Program-made: the position numbers and the translations under genes | Part shown: in pieces, positions 2,366 to 58,710 of the stretch | Numbering within the stretch: the first letter of the stretch is position 1 | Layout: the number at the start of each line of letters is the position of its first letter | Notes under the pieces: model-generated | What the model saw: the letters and a program-made list of their open reading frames with translations, nothing else | What the model was told of the DNA's origin: nothing | Database searches by the model: none | Source: Sipunculus nudus | Taxonomy: Eukaryota; Annelida; Sipuncula; Golfingiida; Sipunculidae | Length of the DNA stretch: 64,000 nucleotides | Assembly (NCBI GenBank): GCA_026874595.1 | Contig: CM049306.1 | Span: forward strand, 19,585,019 to 19,649,018 | Reading direction: 5' to 3'

Positions 2366-3652
2366 AGCTGGCAGTCTGCCAAAGCTATAAATAGATTCAG
2401 GCTGAACTTTTGTGCCAAATATGACGCAGTGAGCAGTCTGCCAAAGCTATAAATAGAATGCAGCTACTGCACTGATTGAACTCTTGACCTGTACCTGGCT
2501 GCACTTCTTCCAATCCTGGCACTGTGCCAAAACTATTTATAGAGATGACATCATCTTGGCTAATGGCCAACATCAAAGCACTGGCAATCTGCCAATGGTA
2601 AACCAAGTGCTGCCATCTGTACACAAAAGTGGTCCCTACTTGAAATAACTTTGAAATTTATTTTCCCAATACAAAATGCTTTTAAGCTGAATTTCTATAA
2701 AAAAAAGAAATTAGGAATATATGTAAAATTATTACGGATGCATACTGAATGCAAAATTAAAATACAGATATATCTCACTGATGGCAAATTCTTGAATTAA
2801 GTTGAGTAGGGATACCAAAAATTTATAATCCACATACATTTGTGTTTATATAGCCACAGAGAGCTGAATATCCATAATTGTAACATTGCCTGGTATGATG
2901 AATAACTTAAATCATAATCTAAATTTTTTAAAAGCTATTAAAAAAACTTTCTTGTCAATATTAACCAAAGATAACCTGAAATCTAAATGTCTAGTGGCAA
3001 AATGTAATAGATGCTGATAAACTGGTGCCAGGCTAGATGTAACAGCATCACACAGCTAAAATATATGGTAAAATGACTCAATTCAATCTGCATAATTCAG
3101 CCAAAAATCATTCATGTGGAACCATTAATGACAACTATTATAAGAATTATTGTAGGGATTATTCTTGTAAAATATTTAACAAACTGGCTTCAGTGGCATC
3201 AGTTGAAAAACGTTTCGCAGGTTTATAACTCATATAGGAAGATACATCAAACTGGCTAAGTTCAGCTTCCCGTAACTCAGCCAAAAAGCACTGAACCAAA
3301 ACAATTTGAACAAACTTGAATTATCAACATCTGAGGATAATTAATGTGTGAGATTTAGGAATTTGGCCCAGTGGTTTTTGAGAAGAAGATCTTTGTAGCC
3401 ACTGAGCTAAAATGGGCTGTTATGGCATATGACTAAATTCAGCTTCCCATAACTTAGCCAAAAGTCACTGAAAAGAGACGATTTGAACAAACTTCAGAAA
3501 GCACTACCCTAGGATCATTTCTGTGTGATATTAAACATTTTGGCCATATCAGGTTTCAGAGAAGAAGTTTTTTGTAGCCACATCTACAGACGGACGGACG
3601 ACGGACAATGGACCAAGACTATAGCTCAGATGACTACAGTCAGCTAAGCTAA

Positions 3653-5946: not shown

Positions 5947-7581
5947 AACAAGGGACCCATGGGTCAAATCGCTCAGCTGAATTTTGGAAAATATTAGTAA
6001 CTGCAAAATATTTTTATTTCTTTTGGTTTTTCATGTTTATTATCATTAGAAAAGCTATGAGAAAACGGCCCTGCTAAAATGAAACTCTGTAAATTATAGA
6101 ATAATGGACATGAGCTAAACCATTTAGTGATGCACCAAGGGAACAAATAGGCCTACGGTAAGTGTTATATAAAAGTAACATTTCATAAACAAATAATGTG
6201 TGAAGGTAATTAAGTTTTTTTTTTAAAAGTTAAATATATGGCAATATGAGTTAATAATTAATCCCACAAAGTTTGACCAATATTCTTAATTTTAATACCA
6301 AGTTAACAGTGTTATTTACACCTAGGCCCCGCCAACTTTAATATATGAATGAAATGCTACAAAGTATTTATATCTTCTTAAATCATGTCATTTAGCACTT
6401 ACAATAGATCCTAATATTTAATCACATTTGAATATTAGGATTAAATTCCTGAAATTTATTTTCTTTAAAAAATTCAAAATTGTCCAAGTCTCATCAAAAA
6501 GAATTTATTTAACATTAAAATTATAAGATTCATCTTGTTTATTAGTCCTGTGTATTGAAGGGGTGGGTGGGGGAGGGGTCTTCGTTGTTACTGCTCATTG
6601 CTGAAAAAAATGTTAATTTTAAGATTCATCCAGTTCATAGTACAGGTCTGTCAACGGAAAGGGGGGGGGGAGAGAAAAAGGCTCCCTGTGGTATGGTATT
6701 AACTGCAGACAGCCTGATCAAGCTCAACTCAGTGGAGAGAGGGCTTGCCCTAGTGATAGGATTGCGTAACATTATGCCAACAGCCTGGGGGGGGGGCATA
6801 GAGAGTTGCACTGAATGACCTACAGTGACCAAAGTGGACTGCTTGACAATGTAAGGGAATACAACAAGAGCCTCCAAAAAAATTCAATAACTAGCCTAAT
6901 TTTGCAGCTTTTATTTTAAATTTCAGATTTTAACAGATTAAATCCTTATGTGCAAATGCTGTGAAAATTAAATCAACAGTACTAACAGGAAAAAAATGTG
7001 CCGTGACCAAAGTTGGGCAAAATTTAAGGTACCAATTTTTTATTTTTGCTAATACTTTAAAAAATTTAAAAGATTTTGATCTGATTTTGGGTATACAATT
7101 TAATTTTGATTAATTAAAGTTATATTACTGGAAAAAATGTCCTTAGTTTTAACATGTTTTGTGTTAAGTGATCAAATATCTTTCATGATTTTTTACAAAA
7201 TGCATTATGTTTGAGCCCATAACTTTTTAAAATTATTTAATACAGACTTAATTTCTTGCATGTACATAGGAACTATATAGAGAAATATATTTTATGGCAA
7301 ATATGAGGAAAAACAGATGAGTGGTTTTGATATTAGGTGGTCCTGAAGTGTGAAAATAGCTTTTCAATAAAAAATTAAGGTTTTTCCTTAATTTCTCAAA
7401 GGTACGAAGTCAGAAGGACCCAGTTTTCGGCTTGGTAGTAGATCTTGGGGACATCTAACATTATGCCGAATTTTGGATTCCTAGGTCTTACGGTTTCAAG
7501 ACGTGCCACATCTACGGACGGACGGACGACGGACAATGGACCACGACTACAGCTCGGATGACTTATAGTCAGCTGAGCTAA
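5947..7581 (+). mobile_element. type I modular element, complete
   Basis: The head is AACAAG + GGACCCATGGGTC (5947-5966), then GCTCAGCTGA. The body has variable G-rich patches (about 6555-6580, 6661-6670 and 6787-6796) and an AT-rich segment with landmarks TTGGGCAAAATTTAAGG (7014) and TGTACATAGGAAC (7261). The tail has GGACGGACGGACGACGG, then hairpin AGCTCGGATGACT/AGTCAGCTGAGCT, ending CTAA at about 7581. Motif GCTCAGCTGA near the head is the inverted complement of TCAGCTGAGC at the tail. No reading frame longer than chance occurs. It resembles non-autonomous Helentron-type (HINE) elements in layout; that is inference. The flanks show no obvious target duplication. Confidence 0.75.
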
Positions 7582-22302: not shown

Positions 22303-25300
22303 AACAAGGGACCCATGGGTCACGGCGCTCAGATGATCGTGATTGAACTATAAATGTTTCTCCACTGTGATACTATATCGAGTCGATAAAGCTTATGAAT
22401 ATCATGGACATGTTGGGCTATTATAAAGGAATGTAATGTAATATGTGAGTAAATGATAAATGAAATTACCTGACTGATGGATTAAAGAGTCAAATATAGT
22501 GGTTTATTTTTAATTTATTTAGGAGGGGTTGAAAATTATGATATATTTGAGCAAATATGAATGCAATGACAGCAGTAATAAGCAGTAGTAGAATGATGAT
22601 AAGGCTATTTGTTGAAGGATCTAAAGTGTATGGTAGTCTGCAAGCTTTCAATTTGACAGATATGATGTTATGAATAACAATGCTGATGAAGTGATTTATG
22701 AATTTGTGACTGTATGACACAATATCTCTTTAGTCTTGACAAGGTACATTATTGTGATGCCCACTATGTCTACATATTACACAATATTGACATAATTTCT
22801 GGCATGTACATAGGTACCTATGGACGAATAGTAATACAAAATATTAAATTATGAATATATCTGATTCATCTTGTTCTTGTTTACTGAGGCTGACTTTGGG
22901 ATGGGGTTTGGAGAAGGGAAAAGTGAGGGCAGCACGAAGGTGGATGTAGAAATATTCTATTGTAATGTTTTTCATTTATATAAGAATATGAAAAGCTAAG
23001 AGGAAAGGAGCCCTCCTACTTCGTTATAGTAAAGTTTTAAATATATGATTGCAAACTAATACTCTGACAAGACTGTCATGAAGAAAAACAGTAAAATTTT
23101 GAGATACTGTGATGCATATGAAAATTTACAGATGGACAGGCAAGTGGACAGAATGGACTAATACCTTTATTTCACTTTCAAGGGAATAATGCATTTAAGT
23201 TTATATATAATCCTATTTTCTTAAGCATATCCACTTTTTCCATTAAGAAGTTTTTATCTGAATCATTTTTTTATTTACAGGTTTTATAAATTTTTAATAA
23301 AAAAAACTGAAAATATAAGTTAAAATATTAGAATTGTTGCAAAAGTTGCAATCATCATATATCCAGAGTGTAGCTCATATTGGGTCATATTATGCATACA
23401 CATATATTTTATTATTTTTAAATCATAAATGTTTAAACTGAATTTAAAAGAAATTAATGCCACAACATGGCATCTACAAGAATATTCCTTGAATCACTAT
23501 TAAAGTTTTGCACATTGGAGTTTTCAGTACATGCTTAATTTTATTCACCAAAATAAAATAAAAGTAAATTTGATAAAATAAAACATCTTTTCAAATAAAG
23601 TGTACACACTGTTGGTTGAATGAGGGACAAACAATATCATTGTGCTAATTACTATCCCAGTTTTAATTTATTACTGGAATTAATAGTCAATTTCACACCT
23701 GGTGAAGTTTTCACTCTTCTGAAGTAAGGAATTACTTATCTGATGAACATCCATACTTTCATAACAATACACCACTTTGTGGACACAATTAAATGTACAC
23801 TTTAATCATTGTAACCCTGGTGGTACAATACAAAATCTAAAATGTAGCATAGCCTAGAATAAGAATGAATCAAATACAGAAAATAATAACATTCATCTAG
23901 TTTATGCACCATCTGGGGGGGGGGAGTGCAGGGCAGAGGGGAAGCCTGCAGGTAGTGGCCAGGCTGACCCAAGGCAAGCTGCCTGGGGTGGGTTACATAA
24001 TGCAAGTGAAGGCTGTACTACTAGGTGGGCTAGATGTAAACAACACTTGACATGGTGTATGAGAACATGAATAAAAGCTAATCTTTCCAATCAATTTCTT
24101 TGAAATTTCAGATTTTAAAGACTAAATCCTTATGTATATATGCTGTGAAAATTAAATCAACAGTGCCAAAGTTGGACAAAATTTAAGGTATTGATTTTTT
24201 ATTTATGCTAATAACTTGAAAAATTTGCAAAATTCAGATCTAATTTTGGGTAAACAATTGAATCTTCATTAAATAAAATTATATTCCTGAAAAAAAGTCT
24301 CTAGGTTCAGCAATTCTCATGTTAGGTGAGTAAATATATTTCCTGATTTTTTTAAAAAACTGCATTATGTTTTGGCCCATAACTTCAAAATAATACCCAA
24401 TACTGACCTAATTTTTGGTATGTTCATAGGAAATGTATGAAAGAATGTGAATACTAAATACGATCAAAAACAGATCAGTGGTTTTGATATTAGGCAGCCT
24501 TGAAGTGTAACAATGGCTTTTTTTATGGAAAACAGAGTTTTTTTTCCTTATTATCTCAAAGGAACAAAGTCCTAATGACCCAATTTTCAGTATGGTAGGA
24601 GATTTTGGGGACATCTAAAATTATGCCAACAGCCTGGGGAGCATACAGATGTGCACTGAATGACCTACAGTCATCAAAGTGGACTGCTTGACAATATAAG
24701 GGAATACAACAAGAGCCTCCAAAAAAATTCAATTACTAGCCCAATTTTGAAGCTTTTATTTTCAAATTTCAGATTTTAACAGATTAAATCCTTATGTATA
24801 CATGCTGTGAAAATTAAATCCACAGTACTTACAGGAAAAAAAACGTGCCGTGGCCAAAGTTGGGCAAAATTTAAGGTACAAATTTTATATTTTTGCCAAT
24901 ATTTAAAAAAATTTAACAGATTTTAATCTAATTTTTGGTATACAATTAAATTTTGATTAATTAAAGTTGTATTACTGGAAAAAAGTCCCTACCTTTAACA
25001 CTTTTGGTCTTAAGTGACCAAATATCTTCCTGATTTTTTTACAAAGTCCATTATGTTTTGGCACATAACTTTTTTAAATTATATAATACTGACTTAATAT
25101 CTGGCATGTACATAGGAACATATAGAGGAATATTTATGGTAAATATGAAGAAAACCAGATGAGTGGTTCTGATATTAGACAGTCCTGAGTGTGATAATAG
25201 ATTTCTAATAAAAAATTGAGGTTTTTCCTTAATATCTCAAAGGAACGAAGTCCTATTGACCCAATTTTCGGCATGGTAGGAGATTTTAGGGACATCTAAC

Positions 25301-25450
25301 AGTATGGTGAATTTCAGATTCGTAGGTCCAACGGTGTCGAAACGTGCCAGTCTTATGGACAGACATCCGGACAGACGGACGGACAGACAGACGGACGACG
25401 GACAATGGACCATGACTATAGCTCAGATGACTTATAGTCAGCTGAGCTAA
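22303..25450 (+). mobile_element. type I element, long form with two internal body copies
   Basis: The head is AACAAG + GGACCCATGGGTC, then GCGCTCAGATGA. The AT-rich body appears twice (about 23890-24640 and 24640-25330), marked by CAAAATTTAAGGTA at 24178 and 24868 and by GACCCAATTTTC-like blocks. A G run lies at about 23916. The tail has interrupted GACG/GACA repeats (25350-25400), the hairpin AGCTCAGATGACT/AGTCAGCTGAGCT and CTAA at 25450. Internal tandem growth parallels type II 43654-45477. It has no coding capacity. Confidence 0.75.
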
Positions 25451-36754: not shown

Positions 36755-37694
36755 AACAAGTGACCCATGGGTCATGATGCTCAGCCGACTGACATGTCGA
36801 TAATATGTCCTTGCACAGGCATCTAATTAAGATAGGTGGCAAAATTGTTCATGTATATTAGCTTAAGTTCATCAAGACCCATAAGCACAACAAGTTTGAT
36901 GAAAATCCAACCAGCCTTTCATGAGGATTCTGGCAGTTTGTATTTTGCATTATTTCTGGGGTGCTCAAACATACCCCAAAACTCTGAGAATATAGGTCAA
37001 TGTGACCCAATTTCAGGTTTCTGGGGAGAACTTTTGAGGAACTCTCAGGATGTCAAGGTAGAAGATTCTGGGCCCCATGGTTATGATTTGTGCCCTACTT
37101 TGGTATCAAATTTTCAATTAAACTGGGGAGTACTTCTGAGCCCCATATAGCTCAAACAATATGGGTAACAGAGACCTAATTTCAGGTTTCCAAGGAGACT
37201 TTTCATAGGCCTCCCAGCATGTTAAGAAAAAAGATTCTATGTCTAGTTGTTACAATTTTGTTCCCTGTTAAAAGATGACCGCATCTTTAAATCTCAAAAA
37301 TAGATTAAAAAAAGGAAAAAATCGAAAAAATACAGGTGGCACCACCAGTCTGCAGAAACTGATGAAACACTCCATGAAAAATATCCATGCAAAGAATAAT
37401 GGTGACCAATGCAGTAGTTGTTCAGATACTTTCTGGGGGGAGGTGGGGGGGGGGGGGGTACTTGGAAGCCCCATAGCTCACAGGTTTTGGTTAACAGAGA
37501 TGTAATTCAAAGTTTCCAAAGAGACTTTTCATGGACCTCTCTGGATGTACAGTGAGAAGATTCCAGGTCCAGCAGTTACCATTTGTTCCTTGTTAACAGA
37601 CAGCAGCCAGATGGCTGGATGGCAGGACGGCTGGACGGACAATGGAAAAAGAGTGATCGCTATAGCTCAGATGACTAACAGTCAGCTGAGCTAA
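36755..37694 (+). mobile_element. type II element, complete, two units
   Basis: The head is AACAAG + TGACCCATGGGTC, then GCTCAGCCGACTG. Units contain GACCCAATTTCAGG / GACCTAATTTCAGG, AGGTGGCACCACCAGTCTG (37333) and a 14 G run (37445-37458). The tail is GGACGGACAATGG, TGATCGCTATAGCTCAG and CAGTCAGCTGAGC, ending CTAA at 37694. It has no coding capacity. Confidence 0.8.
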
Positions 37695-39810: not shown

Positions 39811-40453
39811 AACAAGTGACCCAGGGGTCATGACGCACAGCTATCTAGGAAGACATTCACAAAATGAATTTTATCATCTGAATGCCAAATATTGTAGGTG
39901 GTATCCTAAATCAACTGAACCATAGCTCACAGGTTATGGGTAACAGAGACCTAAGTTCAAGTTTCCAAGGAGATTTTTCATGGACCTCCCTGGATGTCAA
40001 GTATGAAGATTCTAGGTGCAATGGTTACAATCTGTACCCTGTAAAACCGACAACCACATCTTTGAAGGTCTCAAAAATAGAGAAAAAATGCATAAAAATT
40101 CGAAAAAATCAAGGTGACTTCACCAGTCTGCAGGAACTGATGAAACACTCCATGATGAATATGCATGCAAAGAATCATGGTGATTAATGCATTAGCTGTT
40201 CAGATACTGGAGCTTTTGTGTCCTAAATTAATTATTCTGGGGGGTACATCTGAGCCCAATATCTCAAAGAAAATAGGTTACAGAGACCTTATTTCAGGTT
40301 TCCATGGAGATTTTTCATGGACCTCTCTGGATTTCATGTTAGAAGATTCCAGGTCAAGCAGTTACAATTTGTGCCTGATTAATGGTCAGACGGACGGACA
40401 ACGGACAAAGACTGATCATTATAGCTCAGATGACATACAGTCAGCTGAGCAAA
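39811..40453 (+). mobile_element. type II element, complete, shortest copy
   Basis: The head is AACAAG + TGACCCAGGGGTC, then CGCACAGCTAT (one base off the family motif). There are two units with GACCTAAGTTCAAG / GACCTTATTTCAGG and a worn palindrome GGTGACTTCACCAGTCTG (40114). The G run is six bases here. The tail is GACGGACGGACAACGG and ATAGCTCAGATGACATACAGTCAGCTGAGC, with CAAA in place of CTAA. Confidence 0.8.
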
Positions 40454-43653: not shown

Positions 43654-45477
43654 AACAAGTGACCCATGGGTCATGACGCTCAGCTGACTGGGAAGAGATT
43701 TGCCAAAGGAAATTTTATCATCTGAATGGTAGTTTATACCCATTCAACTGAAGCATCAAACAGATTAACCAACAGGCCAAGATTGTGACTGTATTTATAT
43801 ATCTCAAAAATTGAGAAAAAATGCATAAACTTTAAAAAAAATACCAGTTTGCAGAAACTAATAAAAACACTTAATCGTCAATATCCATGCAAAGAATGAT
43901 GGTGAATTCTGCATTAGTTGTTCAGATACTTCAGCTTTTGTATCAAATTTTCAATTATTCTGAGGGATACTTTGGAGTCCTATAGCTTGAAGGATATGGG
44001 TAACAGAGACCTAATTTCAGGTTTCCACAGATACTTTTCATGGGCCTCCTTGCATGACAAGAATGAAGATTCTAAGTCCTGTTGTTACAATTTGTGCCAC
44101 GGTAACAGATGACAGCATCCTTAAAGGTCTCAAAAATAGAGAAAAAATTTGTCAAACAACCTGAACAAATACAGGTGGTGCCACCAGTTTGCAGAAACTG
44201 ATGAAACACTCCATGATCAATATCGATACAAACAATTATGGTGATCGCTGCATTAGTTGTTCAGATACTTCAGCTTTTGTATCAAATTGTCCATTATTCT
44301 GAGGAATACTTCGGAGACCTTTAGCTCAAAGGATATGGGTAACAGAGACCTAATTTCAGGTTTCCATGTAGACTTTTCATGGGTCTCCCTGTGTATCAAG
44401 AATGAAGATTCTAGGTCCAGTCGTAACAATTTGTACCCTGTTGACATAACTACATCCTTAAAGGTCTCAAAAATAGAGAAAAAAAATTGTAATTCATGAT
44501 CAATATGTATGCAAAAAATAATGACCATCAGTGATGTAGTTAATGAGATATTCAAGTTTTTGTATGAAATTTTTGACTATTCTGGGGGGGGGGGGTAATT
44601 TGGGGCCCCATAGCTTGAAAGATATTGGTAACAGAGACCTTATTTCTGGTTTCCATGGAGACTTTTCATAGGTCTCTCAGTGTGTCAAGAATTAAGATTC
44701 TAGGTCCAGTCTTTACGATTTGTGCCCTGTTAACAGATGTTCACATTTTTATAGGTCTCAAAAATAGAGAAAAAAATTCGTAAAAAATCGAAAAATACAG
44801 GTGGCGCCACCAGTCTGCAGACACTGATGAAACATCTCATGATAAATATGTTTGCAAAAAATAATGACCATCAGTGATGTTGTTAATGAGATATTGAAGT
44901 TTTTGTATGAAATTTTTGACTATTCTGGGGGGGGGGGTACTTTGGGGCCCCATAGCTTGAAGGATATGGGTAACAGAGACCTAATTTCTGGTTTCCATGG
45001 AGACTTTACATAGGTCTCTCAGTGTGTCAAGAATTAAGATTCTAGATCCAGACTTTATGATTTGTGCCCTGTTAACAGATGTTCACATTTTTAAAGATCT
45101 CAAAAATAGAAAAAAAATTGTAAAAAATAAAAAAATACAGGTGGCGCCACCAGTCTGCAAGAAGTGATGCAACTTCTCATCACTAATATGTATGCAAAAA
45201 ATCATGACCATTGATGATGTAGTTAATGAGATATTGAAGTTTTTGTATGAAATTTTTAAATATTCTGGGGGGTACTTTGAGGCCCCATAGCTCAAAGGAT
45301 ATGGGTAACAGAGATCTAATTTCTGGTTTCCAAGGAGATTTTTCATGGACCTCTCAGAATGTAAAGTTACAAGATTATAGTTCCAGCGGTTACGATTTGT
45401 GCCAGGTTAACGGACAGACGGACGACGGACAAAGAGTGATCGCTATAGCTCAGATGACTTACAGTCAGCTGAGCTAA
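43654..45477 (+). mobile_element. type II element, complete, five tandem units
   Basis: The head is AACAAG + TGACCCATGGGTC, then GCTCAGCTGACTG. Five units are marked by TAACAGAGACCTAATTTC or variants at 44001, 44340, 44629, 44971 and 45306, spacing 289-342. Palindromes are at 44174, 44800 and 45140; the unit lacking one (about 44480) is shorter by about 50 bases. Poly-G runs at the same unit position measure 12, 11 and 6. The tail is GACGGACGACGGAC and AGCTCAGATGACT/AGTCAGCTGAGCT, ending CTAA at 45477. The head GCTCAGCTGACTG is the exact inverted complement of the tail CAGTCAGCTGAGC. It is the best-preserved copy of the type. Confidence 0.85.
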
Positions 45478-46533
45478 AAAAATTATAAAAAGTTCCCTTT
45501 TTGTACTTAGACTTGATCGACTACCAGTATAATACATGGTGCAGACATAAATAATAATTACAATTAGATATTACTTTCAACTAAACTTATGTCACCAGTT
45601 TCACTTGGTGATATTTTAAACTGAAGGTTTAACCCATTCTATTACCTTTTATGAATAAAAGGTTTATATTTTAATTTTTTCTGTGACAGGATTAAGAAAA
45701 GAGCACCAATTAGCAATATTACCATACACCTGGTGTTCATTTACTTTTAAATATTGATTAATGAAAAACAGGAGAAGCAGCTACATTTTTTCCCCTTTGT
45801 GTGGCCTCATGAAGGTTTTCAGTGAAGAAAAATTATTTACTTTATGATGACTTATCCTGCTTGTCGGCTGGGCACAGACACTCCGATATTTCAATATTGG
45901 CTGCACAAGTTCCAAGTAAGAATGTTTGAGCCTGACTATCCTCCATTTTTTAAGACAACATGACTTTTTTATTCATTTTTGCAAAGCCAAATTGGATGTG
46001 TATTTTGTAGATATTGGTTCTTCCCCTGAACTGCTTTGACAAACAAAAAGCAGCTGACTCTGAAGACTTTTATCAGATGGCCTGGCCAAACTTTTTCAAA
46101 GCCTTGGTTTTTTCCTAATTGATATTTCTGCCTTTCTGTAGAAAATATGTCCTATGTTATCTTTTTCATAGCTCTTGTTCTTGATTTTCTGATTGCCATT
46201 TTCTGTCTTTCTGTATATTGCATTTCAAATCTTTCTGTTGGAAATAAATGTCATCTGCTTTCCATTCTAAATACTTCTCTTCTTTTAGACCCTTCTTTTC
46301 TGAAGCTGAATACTGGTGTGCACCATAACAGCTTTATCTTTCTTTCTGTATAATCAGGACATGTTCTACGGTCCTGTCATTCTTCAGACTTCAAGGGTGG
46401 AAACACATGGTTACAATTACCATAAAATCTAACACTTTTCAAATAACAGAGCAATTTCACTTAATTTTGCTTAAGACTACTTACAAATGTATGAAGCACA
46501 ACTCTTTACCATAAAACAGTGTGGAAACAGTAT
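45478..46533. other. AT-rich DNA, nothing recognised
   Basis: A 34-codon open frame from an ATG on the minus strand (45842-45946) was noticed but has competing frames and no splice context. No repeats are seen. Confidence 0.5.
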
Positions 46534-47496: not shown

Positions 47497-49170
47497 AACA
47501 AGCCTACAGGCCTAATGCAAACCTGTGCAATAGGATATACATCAGGTATTATGCTTCCATGCTAGACCGTTACTTTTAAAGTACAGGTGTAACATGTATA
47601 TGTGCAATGTAAGCACTGCACATTTTGAACCCAAGCACATGCACCAATTACACAAATATCACTGCTGAAATACTGGCATTGGTGCATATAACACAAAAAT
47701 GACTGTATGTGGCACCACCAGTCATGTTTACGACCAAGCCATCAAAAATGTATGGACATGCAAAATTTCAGGCATATACTTCAAACTGATCTTCAGCTAT
47801 GTGCACATGCAGAGCCATGAAACAATTGTAGGTGGCACCACAAGTCTTGTATATAACAAAACTATCCAAGATGTATCAACAAGTATAATTTGAAGCTGAT
47901 ATGTCAAATCACTCCCAAAGAATAAGCAGGAGCATACACTGCAAAAATTATTGTTGGTGGCGCCTCCTGTCTTCCATATGACAAAGCTATCTGATATGAA
48001 TAAATATGCCCAATTTCTGGCTGAAATATCAAATCCCTCCTGATAAATAAGCAGGGACATACACTGTGCAAAAATTACTGTATGTGGCGCCACCAGTCTT
48101 GTATACGGCAAATCTATCCGACATGTATACATATGCATAATTTCAGGCTGATTTATCACATCCCTCCTGAGAATTAAGCAGGTATATACACTGTAAGTCA
48201 TTGTAGGTGTCAACACCAGTTTTGTGTACGAGAAAAGTTGCATCAAAGCTGCATGGACAGGTCAAAATATCAGGCCATTACATCAAACTACTCTTGATTG
48301 AGTCAGGTGCACTGGGCTGACCAGGCATAGGTGGGAAAGGCAGTTGCCCTAATGAAGCAGAACAAATTGCTAGCTTCAGCTACTCCACTGAGTGAACTCT
48401 TGACCTGCACCTGGCTGGACTGAGTGAACTCTTGACCTGTACCCGGCTTGACTGAGTGAACTCTTGACTTGTTGCCTAATCTGATACAGCTGGCAGTCTG
48501 ATCCAGACTGACCTTTGGCCTGTTGCCATATCTAAAATAGCTGGCTGTCTGCCAAGCTATTTATAGATACAGAAACATCCTTGGCCTGTTGGTGAATCTG
48601 TTAACACATACTGAAAGACTTTGGCTACGATGCCTTTTTTCCCAAGACACATTCATAAGATTTTTTTATCAAAATATTAAGAATAATAAAAAAAGCAGTC
48701 ATTTCGCTGTTAAAGGTCAAATAATCCTGCCAAAAATCATTTAAGTAAACTTGAACAAAGGCCTCCTAAGAATCATTTTTGTGCAATGTTACAGAAGTTG
48801 AAACAACAGTTTTGCAGAAGAAGAATACTGCAGCCCTCAGTTTGTAATAAATTTTTTGAAAAAAATCAACGAACCAAAGTTATTCTTATACAACTGAAAG
48901 AACCCTACCCTAGGATAATACCTGTAAAAAAAAATAAACATTTTTAAGCTGATAGAGGCTAAAATTATGAGGTTTTTGCCTGAAAAAAAAACAGCTCAAT
49001 GTAGATTGCCCCACAAAAACTGCAATTTCAAATATGAGTCATGAGCCCAACATAGCACAAAACTTGATGATGCTAGCTCCTGTTGTTTCTGAGATTATGT
49101 TAGTATGCCTACTTGGCCAAATGACTAATTTAAAATACTGTAACTAGATCCATCAAAATTCATCAAACCC
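47497..49170 (+). mobile_element. type IV element, long array form
   Basis: The head is AACAAG + CCTACAGGCCT at 47497, truncated after about 35 bases. Five ~125 bp monomers open with palindromes at 47705, 47832, 47956, 48083 and 48207. Then come the TGAGTGAACTCTTGACCTG tandem (48395-48480), the GGCAGTCTG..TATTTATAGATAC module and the GCTAGCTCCTGTTGTTTCTGAG block (about 49073). No proper tail is seen before the next head at 49183. An open frame of 149 codons on the minus strand (47797-48246) spans the monomers and is a by-product of their period. Confidence 0.7.
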
Positions 49171-49182
49171 AAACCATTGAAA

Positions 49183-51039
49183 AACAAGGGACCCATGGGT
49201 CACTGTGCTCAGCTGAAGTTGACCTTGAAGGTAAAAATCTAAAATATCAAATGAAGATAAAGTGTAAGAGGAAGAGGTAATAAAGGCTATGGTTGGTTTA
49301 TATGATTGGTTTGTATTGATGAGCAAGAAATTGTTGCAAATAATATTTTTGTGACCTGACCATGTGTTTCCTAATGTTAAAACTGAAGCATTTGAGCAGT
49401 TTGTGAACAAATGATCTGTACTATTACCATGATCATTAATTGGCTTTTTTATAAACTGTTACACATTTGTTCAACTGAATCTATTTTTTGTATAATATAT
49501 ATTATTAAATATATATGTATTTTTTTAATGTATACAGTTGAAATATAACTAATTAACAACATAAAACTGGGCAAACAAAGCCTGATCTCAAATTTTGCTG
49601 AGGCAGGAAAATAATGAACAAATGTTTGTATTAAATCCTCATTTTTTTATCACATCAATTTTTTTTAAATTTAAGTTTATATTTCTATACATTTCCAATA
49701 TAACATATATATCTGAATATAAAAGTTGATTCATAATTCTCAACTGCATCATCATTAATCTCAATCTTGTCAGATAGCACCACATCACGCATACAAATGT
49801 TTATTTATTTTTTACCACAAAAATTATCTTTTAAATCTGCAAAACAATAAATATCTAAAAATAATACTTGATTTAGATTTCACAATTTTTAATTGTGTCT
49901 TTATTTATCCATAATGTGCTTCATATTTTATAAATTTAAGCATACTGATGGGTTCAATTATATTTGTTAAAATCATTTAAAAGAAAACTGATTTCTTTAA
50001 AAATGCTACATTACACAACATTGCATCTTCTGGATTACACCTTGAATTACTTTTTCAAGGGGAGTTTTTGCATATCAGAGTGGAAACAGCATTACAATTA
50101 AGGAGATACAGTGAAAACAATAACAATTACTGCATAACGCTTGGTGGGTTGGGTTTGCCGGGAGGGGGGGGGGTGATTGGGGTGGTGATATGAGAATAAC
50201 TGTACACCTGTCACAGCAGGGGATCTCCCCCAGTGACTGTAACAAATCAGAAACCCTGGCATAGCTGACTTCCAGTGACCTGGAGAGGGACCCTGCATCT
50301 GTAATCTGTAATCAAAGCAAATGACTACAAAAGAGCCTCAAGAAAAAATTCAATAACTAACCTACTTTTCAAGCTTTTATTTTAAGATTTAAACAAATTA
50401 AATATTTATGTTTACATGCTGTGAAAATTAAATCAATGGTACTAACAGAAAAAAAACGTGCCATGGTCAAAGTTTGGCAAAATTTAAGGTAGTGATTTTA
50501 TTTTTATGCTAATGACTTAAAAAATTTACAAAATTCAGATATAATTTTGGGTAAACAATTGAATCTTAATTTAGTTATATACTTGGGGAAATAGACTCTA
50601 TTTTTTAAATTTTCCATGTTAAGTGAGTGAATATTTTTCCTGATTTTTTACAAAGTCCATTATGTTTGGGCCCATAACTTAAAGAATTTATACTTAACAG
50701 ACTTAATTTCTGGGATGAACATAGGAACTATATAGAGGAATATTTATGGTAAATATGAGGAAAAACAGATGAGCAGTCCTGAAGTGTGAAAATAGGATTT
50801 TAATAAAAAAAATTGAGGTTTTTTCTTAATTTCTTAAAGGAACAAAGTCACAAAGACCCAGTTTTCGGCTTGGTAGGAGTTCTTGGGGACATCTAACATT
50901 ATGCCAAATTTTGGATTCCTAGGTCTCACGGTTTCAAAATGTACCACATCTACGGACGGACGGACGAACAGACAGACAGACAGACGACGGACAATGGACC
51001 ACGACTATAGCTCAGATGACTTATAGTCAGCTGAGCTAA
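49183..51039 (+). mobile_element. type I element, complete
   Basis: The head is AACAAG + GGACCCATGGGTC, then GTGCTCAGCTGAAG. A G run lies at about 50164-50173 and body landmarks TTTGGCAAAATTTAAGG (50468) and GAACATAGGAAC-like (50715). The tail is an extended GACG/GACA tract (50953-50993), AGCTCAGATGACT/AGTCAGCTGAGCT and CTAA at 51039. A type IV 3' module begins at once. Confidence 0.75.
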
Positions 51040-51933: not shown

Positions 51934-52340
51934 AACAAGTGACCCAGGGGTCATGACACTCAGCTGACTGGGAAGACATTCACAAAAGAAATTTTACCAT
52001 CTGAATGCCAAATTTTTTTAGGTTGTATCCCCATCAACTGAAGAATTACTTGGAGGATATGGGTAACAGAGACCTAATTTCAGGTTTCCATGGAGATTTT
52101 TCATTTTTCAAGTACAAAGATTCTAGGTGCAATGGTTAAGATTTGTGCCCTGTAAACAGACGAACTCATCTTTGAAAGTGGCGCCACCAGACTGCATGAA
52201 CTGATTAATCACTCCATGATTAATGTGCATGCAAAGAATCATGGTGACAAATGCATTAGTTGTTCAGAAAGTGGAGGTTTTGTATCAAATTTTTAATTAT
52301 ACTGAGAGGTATTTACAAGCCCTATAGCTCAAAGAATACT
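51934..52340 (+). mobile_element. type II element, 3'-truncated
   Basis: The head is AACAAG + TGACCCAGGGGTC, then ACTCAGCTGACTG. One full unit has palindrome AGTGGCGCCACC (52177); the second unit fades after TAGCTCAAAGAATA (about 52340). No tail. Confidence 0.75.
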
Positions 52341-54346: not shown

Positions 54347-56690
54347 AACAAGGGACCTATGGGTCACGGCGCTCAGCTGTTATATATGATAAAAAAATAT
54401 GATTTAGAAATGAGGCACATGCTGGTTTTGTGTGGTAATTAGTATAAGCTGTTTTATGAGTTGTTGTTGTTAAGCTTATGTATGATTTTGATAGTACCTT
54501 TGGAGACAGAGAAGAGAATTGATTTCATTTATTTTATTAACAAATGGAGTACTATTGTCACACAGATTTTGACTTGGCCATATAACATATAAGCAGAACA
54601 TATAATATAAGAGTTTAACTATTTATTAAAAAAAATTACAAATATTGTCCCAGATATAATTTTTATTAAAAATAATAAGAGGATATCGTATGATGTTTAA
54701 AATGAAATATAACTGAAATGATTATTAAAATAATATTAAAGAATATATTCATGAATGCATTCATGAATACATTTGGAAAGTATTTGCACTGGTATTAATA
54801 TACTTTCATTTTTACCTGAATTCCCATTCTTTATGCAAGAAATTTTATAATGGAGTACATATTCATATAAGTATTTAAATACAATTGGAAAGTATTCCCA
54901 CCATGTCTGGTATTTATTCAGTTTTCACCAAACAATGGTGTTGAGAATCCAGAATGTACAAAATTCACACATTTAAATAATGATCATAAGTACCTGGTTT
55001 TATGGCTTTTATTTATATTAAAAAAAATAAATGTGAAATATTTATTTTGGACTAATTTCACATCAATGTACACACTAGACACAGTAGGAATCTAGATTAA
55101 TAGTATCAACTGCATCTTTGTCTATCATTAATTTCCTTCATATGATCCCTAATGATTAGTAATGAATAATATGATTTACTTTTTTATTATTAAAATTGAA
55201 CTGAAAAATGCCATAGGTGACTGCCTGGTGTTATTTGGACTACGTGACATTCTATCCATCGATACAAGATTCTTTTATCGTCAGTAACTGCAAGTTAATT
55301 CCCTATTATTATAAACTAACAAATTCCTTTTCTATTTTTCTTTAATTTGTTATTAAAAACCAATAAAAATTGATTAATTTATTGTTTATTGTTATGTTGT
55401 TGGTTAAAACTACTAGATGAATTGGGTTGGACACCTGGATCAACTGTGGCTGGCCATAAGCTGCCTTGCTGCCCCAGTATATGCCTAGCTTCAATTGTGC
55501 ATAATTTGCTGAAAGTTCAACAAGGTCAACATACAGGTGACTCAAGAGTGGCTGACTAGAGAGCCAAGGTCTGACATGGTCTCATAAAAACATTAATAAA
55601 AGCTACAATTTTTGGCCAATTTCTTTCAGCTTTCTAAACTAAAAAGCTGAAATCCTTCTGTGTGCATGATATGAAAATTATATAAACAGAGCTCACATGA
55701 AACAAAAGTGAAATGGTCAAAGTTGGGCAAAATTTAAGGTACTAATTTTATATTTATTCTAATAACTTATAAAATTTAAAAAATTCAGAACTAATTTTGG
55801 GTATTCAATTGAATCTTGATTAAAAAATGTTACATCCCTGACAAAAATCTCTAGCTTCAGCAAGCCCCTTGTTAAGGGAGTAAATATATTTCTTGATTTT
55901 TTACAAAGTGCATTATGTTTGGGCCCATAACTTAAAACAATTACGCAATACTGACATCATTTCTGGCATGTGTACAGAGAATGTATAGAAAAACATGTAT
56001 ATTATATATGGTTAAAGTCAGATCATTGGTTTTGATATTAGGCAGTATTGAAGTGTAACAATGGGTTTTTAATTGAAAAATAAGTATTTCATAAATATCT
56101 CAAAGGTATTAAGTCCTAGTGACCAAATTCTGGGCATGGTAGGGAATTTTGGAGACATCTAATTGTATGCCAAATTTTAGGAACTGAGAGCTTAAGCTGG
56201 GGAGCTGAGCTCTTGTAAACTGCATAACACTAGCCTAATGTAAACAATGTTACATGGTGCTTGAAAACTTGAAAAAAATCTACAGTTTTTGATCAACTGG
56301 TTTCAAATTTTTGGTGTTAACAGACAAAATGCTAACAAAAACATGCTGAGAAAATGAAATCCACAGTACTTACAGGAAAAAAACGTGCCATGGTCAAAGT
56401 TAGGCAAAATTTAAGGTACCAATTTTACATTTTTGCCAATATTTAAAAAATTTAACAGATTTTGATCTAATTTTTGGTATACAATTTAATTTTGATTAAT
56501 TTAAGTTATATTACTTGAAAAAAAGTCCATAGCTTTAACAAGTTTTGTGTTAAGTGATCAAATATCTTTCCTGATTTTTTACAAAATGCATTATGTTCTG
56601 GCCCATAACTTTCTTAAATTATACAATACAGACATAATTTCAGGCATGTACATAGGAACTATGTGAAATCAGAATATTTTCTTATTATAA
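54347..56690 (+). mobile_element. type I element, 3'-truncated, two body copies
   Basis: The head is AACAAG + GGACCTATGGGTC, then GGCGCTCAGCTG. Body landmarks TTGGGCAAAATTTAAGG and a variant are at 55723 and 56399. The second copy breaks off after CATGTACATAGGAAC (about 56660) and there is no tail. The first copy's end (about 56190) is also incomplete. Confidence 0.7.
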
Positions 56691-57984: not shown

Positions 57985-58710
57985 ATAATTAGACTGGGTG
58001 TATTACAGTGTGAAAATGAGGAGGGCAGCTCTGTGGCCTTGACCTTTGACCCTGTGACCTCATACTTAATAGGATTCTTCATCCATGGGTGCAGAATGAG
58101 CCATATGAGCAAGATGAAAGGTTTTGTTCAAACTCTTTGGCCTAAAATGGGTCCACCAGGTTTTTCAAGAAGTGGGTCCTGTGGCTTTGACCTTTGACCC
58201 TGATGACCTCAATATAGATAGGGTTCTTCATCCATGGATGGGTGAGCCATATGTGCAAGATGGAAGGTTTTGGTCAAATGGTTTGGCTTAAAATGGTTCC
58301 ACAAGATTTTCATGAAGTGGTCCTGTGGCTGTGACCTTTGACCCCATATTACCTCAAAACTGATAGGGTTCTTCATCCTTGGGATGGGTGAGCCATATGT
58401 GCAAATTAAAACAGTTTGGCTTAATATGGGTCCATAAGCTTTTTCAAGAAGGCAGTCCAGTGTCCTTGACCTTTGACCTCAAAATTGAAAGGGTCTTTAT
58501 CTATTGGTGGGTGAGCCGTATGTCCTAGATGAAAGGTTTTGGGGAAACAGTTTGGCTTAAAATGGGTCCACAAGCTTTTTCAAGAAGGCGGTCCCGTGGC
58601 CTTGACCTTTGACCCCGTAACCTCAGAATTGAGAGGGTTCTTCATTCTGGAGAGGGTTCTTCCACAAGCCAATACTGGATGGACAGATGGACGAACGAAC
58701 AGATAATGAC
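57985..58710 (+). mobile_element. type III element, array without head or tail hairpin
   Basis: Five units of 136-149 bases have TGACCTTTGACC at 58040, 58188, 58331, 58467 and 58603, each followed by GGGTTCTTCATC- and GAGCCATATGTGCAAGATG-type words. It ends GGATGGACAGATGGACGAACG near 58695; no CCGCTTAA hairpin follows. It begins about 125 bases beyond the acceptor of the candidate exon at 57674-57860, thus inside its putative intron. Confidence 0.75.

What the first reader, a model, noticed from the sequence alone, without database searches (positions are those of the whole stretch)
43654..45477. Element type whose head and tail motifs are exact inverted complements, with a palindrome behind AACAAG
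At 43654 the head is AACAAG + TGACCCATGGGTC + GCTCAGCTGACTG. The tail is AGCTCAGATGACT..AGTCAGCTGAGCT. GCTCAGCTGACTG and CAGTCAGCTGAGC are exact inverted complements, and the tail also forms its own hairpin. The same layout recurs at 5947, 22303, 36755, 39811, 49183, with truncated copies at 51934 and 54347. This matches the logic of Helentron/HINE elements (asymmetric terminal inverted repeats, 3' hairpin, internal microsatellite), but no such bivalve family with these motifs is known to me.
Basis: partly seen in the sequence, partly recalled or inferred. Interest (0 to 1): 0.8.

Follow-up and report, generated by a model that had tools for sequence, protein, structure and literature searches.

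The report
HINE family and its autonomous Helentron
The repeated DNA pieces are members of a known kind of copy-and-paste jumping gene (Helentron-dependent HINE elements), written on the opposite strand from the one first read, and a gene-carrying parent element with the same ends is present in the same genome.

Summary
The motifs are real. Read on the minus strand, window 43654-45477 has the published HINE anatomy: T-run, 5' subTIR, its inverted repeat, GTCY microsatellite, ~340-bp tandem repeats, 3' subTIR, 14-bp palindrome, CTTGTT end. The 3' end motif occurs exactly 6,533 times in the 1.43-Gb genome (reversed control 0). Flanks outside 38 fetched 5' ends differ (2 of 703 pairs alike). Joined flanks hit sites without the element in 12 of 43 queries: 7 strong, 2 weaker, 3 set aside. 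One carries an open frame of 2,342 codons with Rep, PIF1 helicase, a herpes-tegument-like domain and a weak endonuclease match. Window HINE and partner share 64 of 65 bp at the 5' end, 34 of 35 at the 3' end. Class right, strand wrong, kind known, also in oysters. Less ordinary: compound units with two 5' ends and one 3' end (two read in full; serial 5' ends at six loci). Host not verified.

The parts
43654..45477 (-). HINE element (family A), 1824 bp; 5' end at 45477, 3' end at 43654
   Evidence: ends shared with the autonomous Helentron
43654..43659 (-). 3' terminus CTTGTT (AACAAG on +)
   Evidence: column identity 1.00 at the first base, 0.37 one base outside, 24 motif-selected heads
43660..43673 (-). 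3' palindrome TGACCCATGGGTCA
43678..43690 (-). 3' subTIR CAGTCAGCTGAGC
43843..44484 (-). central tandem repeats, period 339
44502..45411 (-). central tandem repeats, period 342
45410..45430 (-). GTCY-type microsatellite (ACGG/ACAG on +)
   Evidence: read; the same kind of stretch is seen in the copies
45447..45459 (-). inverted repeat that pairs with the 5' subTIR; 5' hairpin -10.6 kcal/mol, z -3.79
45462..45474 (-). 5' subTIR GCTCAGCTGACTG
45476..45482 (-). T-run at the 5' terminus (A-run on +), not separable from the target's Ts
39811..40453 (-). HINE copy, family A, short
36755..37694 (-). HINE copy, A-like
49183..51039 (-). HINE copy, sister subfamily B (3' end GGGTCCCTTGTT)
22303..25450 (-). 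HINE copy, subfamily B
5947..7581 (-). HINE copy, subfamily B
51934..51983 (-). solo 3' end (A); no 5' end paired in the window by the scan
54347..54383 (-). solo 3' end (B); no 5' end paired in the window by the scan

Best explanation
The element is a HINE: a non-autonomous Helentron derivative mobilised in trans by an autonomous Helentron of the same genome that has the same two termini. Shown: anatomy, sharp ends, T-rich target without other duplication, termini shared with a Rep/helicase element whose copies are still 94-99% alike at the 3' end, thousands of copies of the 3' end. Inferred: the partner's HUH-type Rep nicks at the T-run before the 5' subTIR, the PIF1 helicase peels off or copies one strand from 5' to 3', the 3' subTIR and palindrome act as the stop signal, and the single strand is joined into another T-run.
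For: Layout on the minus strand matches the published HINE parts one by one (passages; sections). Edges: the 38 fetched copies were chosen by a match to the 5' end, so their start is given; their 100-nt outer flanks are alike in only 2 of 703 pairs (L020/L021, L037/L041). 24 motif-selected heads: column identity 1.00 at the first base, 0.37 just outside; 25 tails: 0.92 three bases beyond CTAA, 0.36 at the fourth. Sites without the element: 12 of 43 joined-flank queries had a hit across the join; 7 strong (L019, L027, L038, L039, L042, L043 inner end, L046), 2 with a short left arm (L023, L048), 3 set aside. Autonomous partner: 143 PF14214 matches (150 of 195 candidates scored), 0 of 14 control genomes. 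C17:35630192 lies in a 2,342-codon open frame with Helitron_like_N 5.1e-27, PIF1 6.5e-23, DUF6570 1.7e-16, Herpes_teg_N 1.8e-11, Exo_endo_phos 4.4e-4. Its 3' end is the HINE 3' end (34 of 35); the C1 copy's 5' end is the HINE 5' end (64 of 65). Six further places match the last 524 bp at 94-99% and stop at 521-528 (40 scored of 1,562 candidates). Five of five copies read begin at TTAGCTCAGCTGACT and end at CACTTGTT with different flanks. Site without the C1 copy: L034, 133 of 166; 40 of 40 scored genome places span the join (764 candidates). 3' end motif: 6,533 exact, reversed control 0.
Against: The endonuclease match is below Pfam's curated cut-off (20.5 vs 24.5 bits) and the frame stops soon after it, 1,022 nt before the 3' end; whether the protein is full length is not known. 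Of three Rep elements sampled, two (C11:50385293, C13:9109249) showed no such ends in the stretches read. The window HINE shares only the last 35 bp with the partner at the 3' side. As single strands the three 3' ends folded are not better than shuffles (z -0.93, 0.56, -1.37), and one of two 5' ends is weak (z -1.76). 31 of 43 joined-flank queries found no site without the element in the loci held, as expected for unique flanks in one assembly. The palindrome of the C10 partner copy has a mismatch. No transposition was observed.
Confidence: 0.94

Rival explanations
1. A cut-and-paste MITE with terminal inverted repeats.
For: Exact 13-nt inverted motifs near both ends.
Against: The inverted motifs are subterminal and asymmetric; no target duplication other than Ts in the 9 kept sites; the partner with the same ends encodes Rep and PIF1, and no DDE transposase family was among its Pfam matches.
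Confidence: 0.02
2. Helitron2-type element (asymmetric terminal inverted repeats, palindromes at both ends, no endonuclease).
For: Palindromic sequence at both ends; endonuclease match weak.
Against: Exo_endo_phos match at residues 2124-2306 of 2,342 and a Herpes_teg_N (VTD) domain; [quoted passage not shown]
Confidence: 0.06
3. A dispersed satellite array spread by recombination, with ends that only look like those of a transposon.
For: Central repeats of about 340 bp; compound units could arise by unequal exchange between repeats.
Against: Sharp ends in different flanks and sites without the element.
Confidence: 0.01

Closest known systems
Cg_HINE elements of Crassostrea gigas (PMC7492417; passages and section 7 seen)
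   Same: 5' subTIR + complementary IR + GTCY/GTCC microsatellite, satellite-like central repeats, 3' subTIR + palindrome, in this order
   Different: Letters of their ends could not be compared (supplement not read). Repeat period here is about 340 bp; one related oyster repeat is given as 164-166 bp (C. angulata CanSat01, PMC11136912 passage). An autonomous partner with the same ends is shown here
HINE/DINE-1 and Helentrons of mites, Culex and Drosophila (PMC4067079; passages and section 6 seen)
   Same: subTIRs near the 5' terminus, 3' palindrome, T-rich targets, variable T number, no target-site change, Rep/helicase/endonuclease partner
   Different: Here the autonomous element itself carries the tandem repeats and an internal second 5' end (read in the C17 copy)
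VTD-bearing Helentrons (PMC9741609; passages seen)
   Same: Herpes-tegument-like domain in a Rep/helicase protein with a C-terminal endonuclease match; molluscs are named among hosts
   Different: Catalytic residues of the VTD domain not checked here; endonuclease match below cut-off
CvA, CvE and CvG of Crassostrea virginica (named in a PMC11136912 passage; the family name pearl is recalled)
   Same: Helitron/Helentron-type ends with central tandem repeats
   Different: Sequence not compared

Membership tests
HINE (non-autonomous Helentron) | 5' subTIR 2-4 nt from the 5' terminus | tested here: met
   TTTTT, TTATT or TTTT then AGCT[C/A]AGCTGACT in the 38 fetched copies (copies selected by this end)
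HINE (non-autonomous Helentron) | IR complementary to the 5' subTIR after a short spacer | tested here: met
   13-bp arms with one mismatch, 3-nt loop
HINE (non-autonomous Helentron) | GTCY-type microsatellite and central tandem repeats | tested here: met
HINE (non-autonomous Helentron) | 3' subTIR followed by a palindrome near the 3' terminus | tested here: met
   palindrome 6 nt from the end; not better than shuffles as a single-strand fold
HINE (non-autonomous Helentron) | insertion in T-rich target without target-site duplication | tested here: met
   7 strong and 2 weaker sites of 43 queries, each with 4 or more Ts in a row; C1 partner copy
HINE (non-autonomous Helentron) | shares both ends with an autonomous Helentron | tested here: met
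Helentron (the partner) | Rep + PIF1 helicase | tested here: met
   catalytic residues not checked
Helentron (the partner) | AP endonuclease domain at the C-terminus | tested here: inconclusive
   PF03372 at 2124-2306, E 4.4e-4, 20.5 bits against cut-off 24.5
Canonical Helitron | 5' TC, 3' CTRR, insertion between A and T | tested here: not met
   ends are T-run/AGCTC and CTTGTT, T-rich targets
HINE (non-autonomous Helentron) | rolling-circle movement | not testable with these tools
   no transposition assay or circle data

The most novel reading that the evidence does not exclude
Nested insertion builds new mobile units: a HINE that lands in the repeat array of another yields a unit with two 5' ends and one 3' end, because copying that starts at the outer 5' end stops at the first 3' palindrome. 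Such 5'-stacked units are themselves mobile and would make the repeat array longer at each round, a ratchet for satellite growth and a natural record of the polarity of Helentron replication.
Probability: 0.3. Interest if true: 0.55.

Novelty: new member of a known kind. Interest (0 to 1): 0.36.

Why it matters
It turns an unnamed repeat into a defined HINE family with an autonomous partner in hand, so ends, target and enzyme can be tested together. The compound units give a sequence-only handle on where Helentron copying starts and stops; the experimental work seen here (PMC4778049, passages) was done on a canonical Helitron.

Tried and rejected
Canonical Helitron reading (CTAA as a 3' CTRR end): rejected, because the partner's frame and 3' end run the other way and targets are T-rich. 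Candidate 5' end TTTTTCAGCTCACC at C17:35635406: rejected, conservation runs through it in five other places. Candidate 5' end at L055 minus-strand position 362: an internal second 5' end, since copies stay alike upstream; the true 5' end was then found. Rep elements C11:50385293 and C13:9109249: no matching ends in the parts read (for C11 the first ~300 bp behind the frame were not read). Search of IMG/VR for the head pattern: 0 hits. Papers: three head strings hit 7 papers, unrelated by title; five end motifs hit none. First flank-joining attempt gave no clean site without the element. The sister head type AACAAGGCCTACAGGCC (667, 15000, about 35050) was not resolved. My notebook (second checkpoint entry) gives 128 nt between stop codon and 3' end; that was wrong, it is 1,022 nt. 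Not reached because the search machine did not answer: genome count of 5' ends, count of 3'|5' tandem junctions, and a haemocyanin search to place the host.

Full report
Observation. GCTCAGCTGACTG with up to 2 mismatches occurs 21 times in the window; shuffles give 0.80. All eight named heads were recovered; six are paired with a tail and two are solo. In 43654-45477 the two inner motifs are 13 of 13 inverted complements; in the other five pairs the match is imperfect.

Orientation. On the minus strand the 1,824-bp element reads: T-run - AGCTCAGCTGACT (with the next G the 5' subTIR) - GTA - AGTCATCTGAGCT (IR) - GTCC/GTCT microsatellite - repeats of about 340 bp - CAGTCAGCTGAGC (3' subTIR) - GTCA - TGACCCATGGGTCA (palindrome) - CTTGTT. 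This is the order given for HINEs in mites and Drosophila (PMC4067079, passages and section 6) and for Cg_HINE in the Pacific oyster (PMC7492417, passages and section 7).

Edges. The window lies in G000, contig C1, a genome of 1.4265 Gb in 153 contigs; a search with 81 bp of the 5' end gave 40 scored matches out of 312 candidates. I fetched 38 of these 40 places (the other two are the window itself and C6:21486969). Being selected by this query they all begin with a T-run (TTTTT, TTATT or TTTT) and AGCT[C/A]AG; the informative part is the flank, which is alike in only 2 of 703 pairs: L020/L021, two places about 100 kb apart, and L037/L041. In 24 heads and 25 tails selected by motif, with identical flanks dropped and L001-L008 left out as duplicates, column identity falls from 1.00 to 0.37 at the first base outside the head and from 0.92 to 0.36 at the fourth base beyond CTAA. 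The 3' end motif occurs 6,533 times exactly (3,299 + 3,234), with 0 for the reversed control.

Sites without the element. For 43 element spans I joined the two flanks and searched all loci held. Twelve had a match across the join. Seven are strong (L019, L027, L038, L039, L042, inner end of L043, L046; more than 30 nt on each side of the join), two have only about 15-20 nt on the left (L023, L048), and three were set aside (two in L012, where an element abuts its neighbour or only one side fits, and the outer end of L043). An example: L019, filled ...GCGCCACCATTT[TTAGCTC...CTTGTT]TGTGTATG, against L047 ...GCGCCACCATTTTTGTGTATG. In the nine kept sites the target holds at least four Ts in a row and I see no other duplicated base. 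One such site is in the window itself (23383-23221, for L027).

Autonomous partner. PF14214 gave 143 matches in the genome (150 of 195 candidates scored) and none in 14 control genomes. I sampled three long frames. Two showed no such ends in the stretches read. The third, C17:35630192, has the HINE 3' end 1,022 nt behind the stop codon of its frame. The frame is open over 2,342 codons, first Met at 45, and holds Herpes_teg_N 63-210, DUF6570 681-805, Helitron_like_N 959-1112, PIF1 1621-1839 and, below cut-off, Exo_endo_phos 2124-2306. The last 524 bp recur in six other places at 94-99%, all stopping at 521-528 although the query ran on for 38 bp of flank (40 scored of 1,562 candidates). Following conservation upstream led to the 5' end: in C1, C5, C10, C9 and C17 the alike sequence begins at the T-run before AGCTCAGCTGACTG, after five different flanks, and all five end at CACTTGTT, the C10 copy with one palindrome mismatch. 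By coordinates the five span 15,938 (C1), 16,130 (C5), 15,731 (C10), 16,278 (C9) and 14,887 bp (C17); interiors were read in large part only for C17. The window HINE and the C1 copy share the first 65 bp at 98.5% and then leader and repeats at about 79%; at the 3' side only the last 35 bp are shared with C17 (97%). The joined flanks of the C1 copy match L034 over 166 columns at 80% without the element, and 40 of 40 scored genome places span the join (764 candidates).

Compound units. L029 and L030 each hold two 5' ends and then one 3' end, with the same inner junction (repeat ...CATCAG|TTTTTAGCTC); 500 bp of outer flank on either side show no similarity between them. The 120-bp junction was found at 40 of 40 scored places (849 candidates), ten at 100% and three more at 99%. 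A query across the outer 5' end of L029 found 40 places (2,148 candidates): 37 start at the element edge, three include the flank. Combining the two lists, six junctions have an outer 5' end upstream in the same strand, at 1275-1288 bp (five) or 937 bp (one); L037 has a tandem at 1613. In the five besides L029 the match begins at the edge, so their flanks differ from that of L029; their flanks were compared with one another only as far as holds them, and a single 3' end was read only in L029 and L030. The C17 autonomous copy also has an internal second 5' end, and copies in C1, C5 and C10 match across it. This is expected if copying starts at any 5' end and stops at the first 3' palindrome; for a canonical Helitron the 3' hairpin was shown to act as terminator and the 5' end to be essential (PMC4778049 passages). 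It is not proof: unequal exchange between repeats could make such units, and any enzyme using the outermost ends could then move them.

Verdict. A new family of a well-known kind, with an autonomous partner identified.

Noticed in passing
L029 (minus) 2060, 3395, 5949; L030 (minus) 1048, 2384, 4611: Compound HINE units with two 5' ends and one 3' end, same inner junction, different outer flanks; serial 5' ends at six loci by coordinates.
   Followed up: partly
L056:1203-8228 minus strand, residues 63-210 and about 377-530: Herpes_teg_N (VTD-type) domain near the N-terminus of the Helentron protein, followed by a 21-residue tandem repeat (motif ARQ[N/I]ET seen 7 times from 377 to 524).
   Followed up: partly
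window 667, 15000, about 35050: Another head type, AACAAGGCCTACAGGCC, with a different palindrome and no clear 3' subTIR; the 667 head may pair with a B-like 5' end at 3652.
   Followed up: no
L012 plus strand 820-900: 3' end of one element and 5' end of the next are separated by only a few bases (GGGTCCCTTGTTTATTAGCTCAG), a tandem arrangement.
   Followed up: no
L064 (C10 autonomous copy, 3' side): The autonomous 3' end is followed after 45 bp by the 3' end of a B-type HINE; the 5' flank of this copy gave no B match.
   Followed up: partly
L020 and L021 (C16, about 100 kb apart): Two copies with alike flanks shifted by 11 bases (85 columns, 96%), perhaps a segmental duplication.
   Followed up: no
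G000 contigs C1-C17: The genome matches listed fall on contigs C1-C17, 61-111 Mb where the length was shown, which suggests 17 chromosomes; host not identified.
   Followed up: no
window 58031-58645 and 47827-48194: Further tandem arrays (periods 146 and 127) outside the six paired elements.
   Followed up: no
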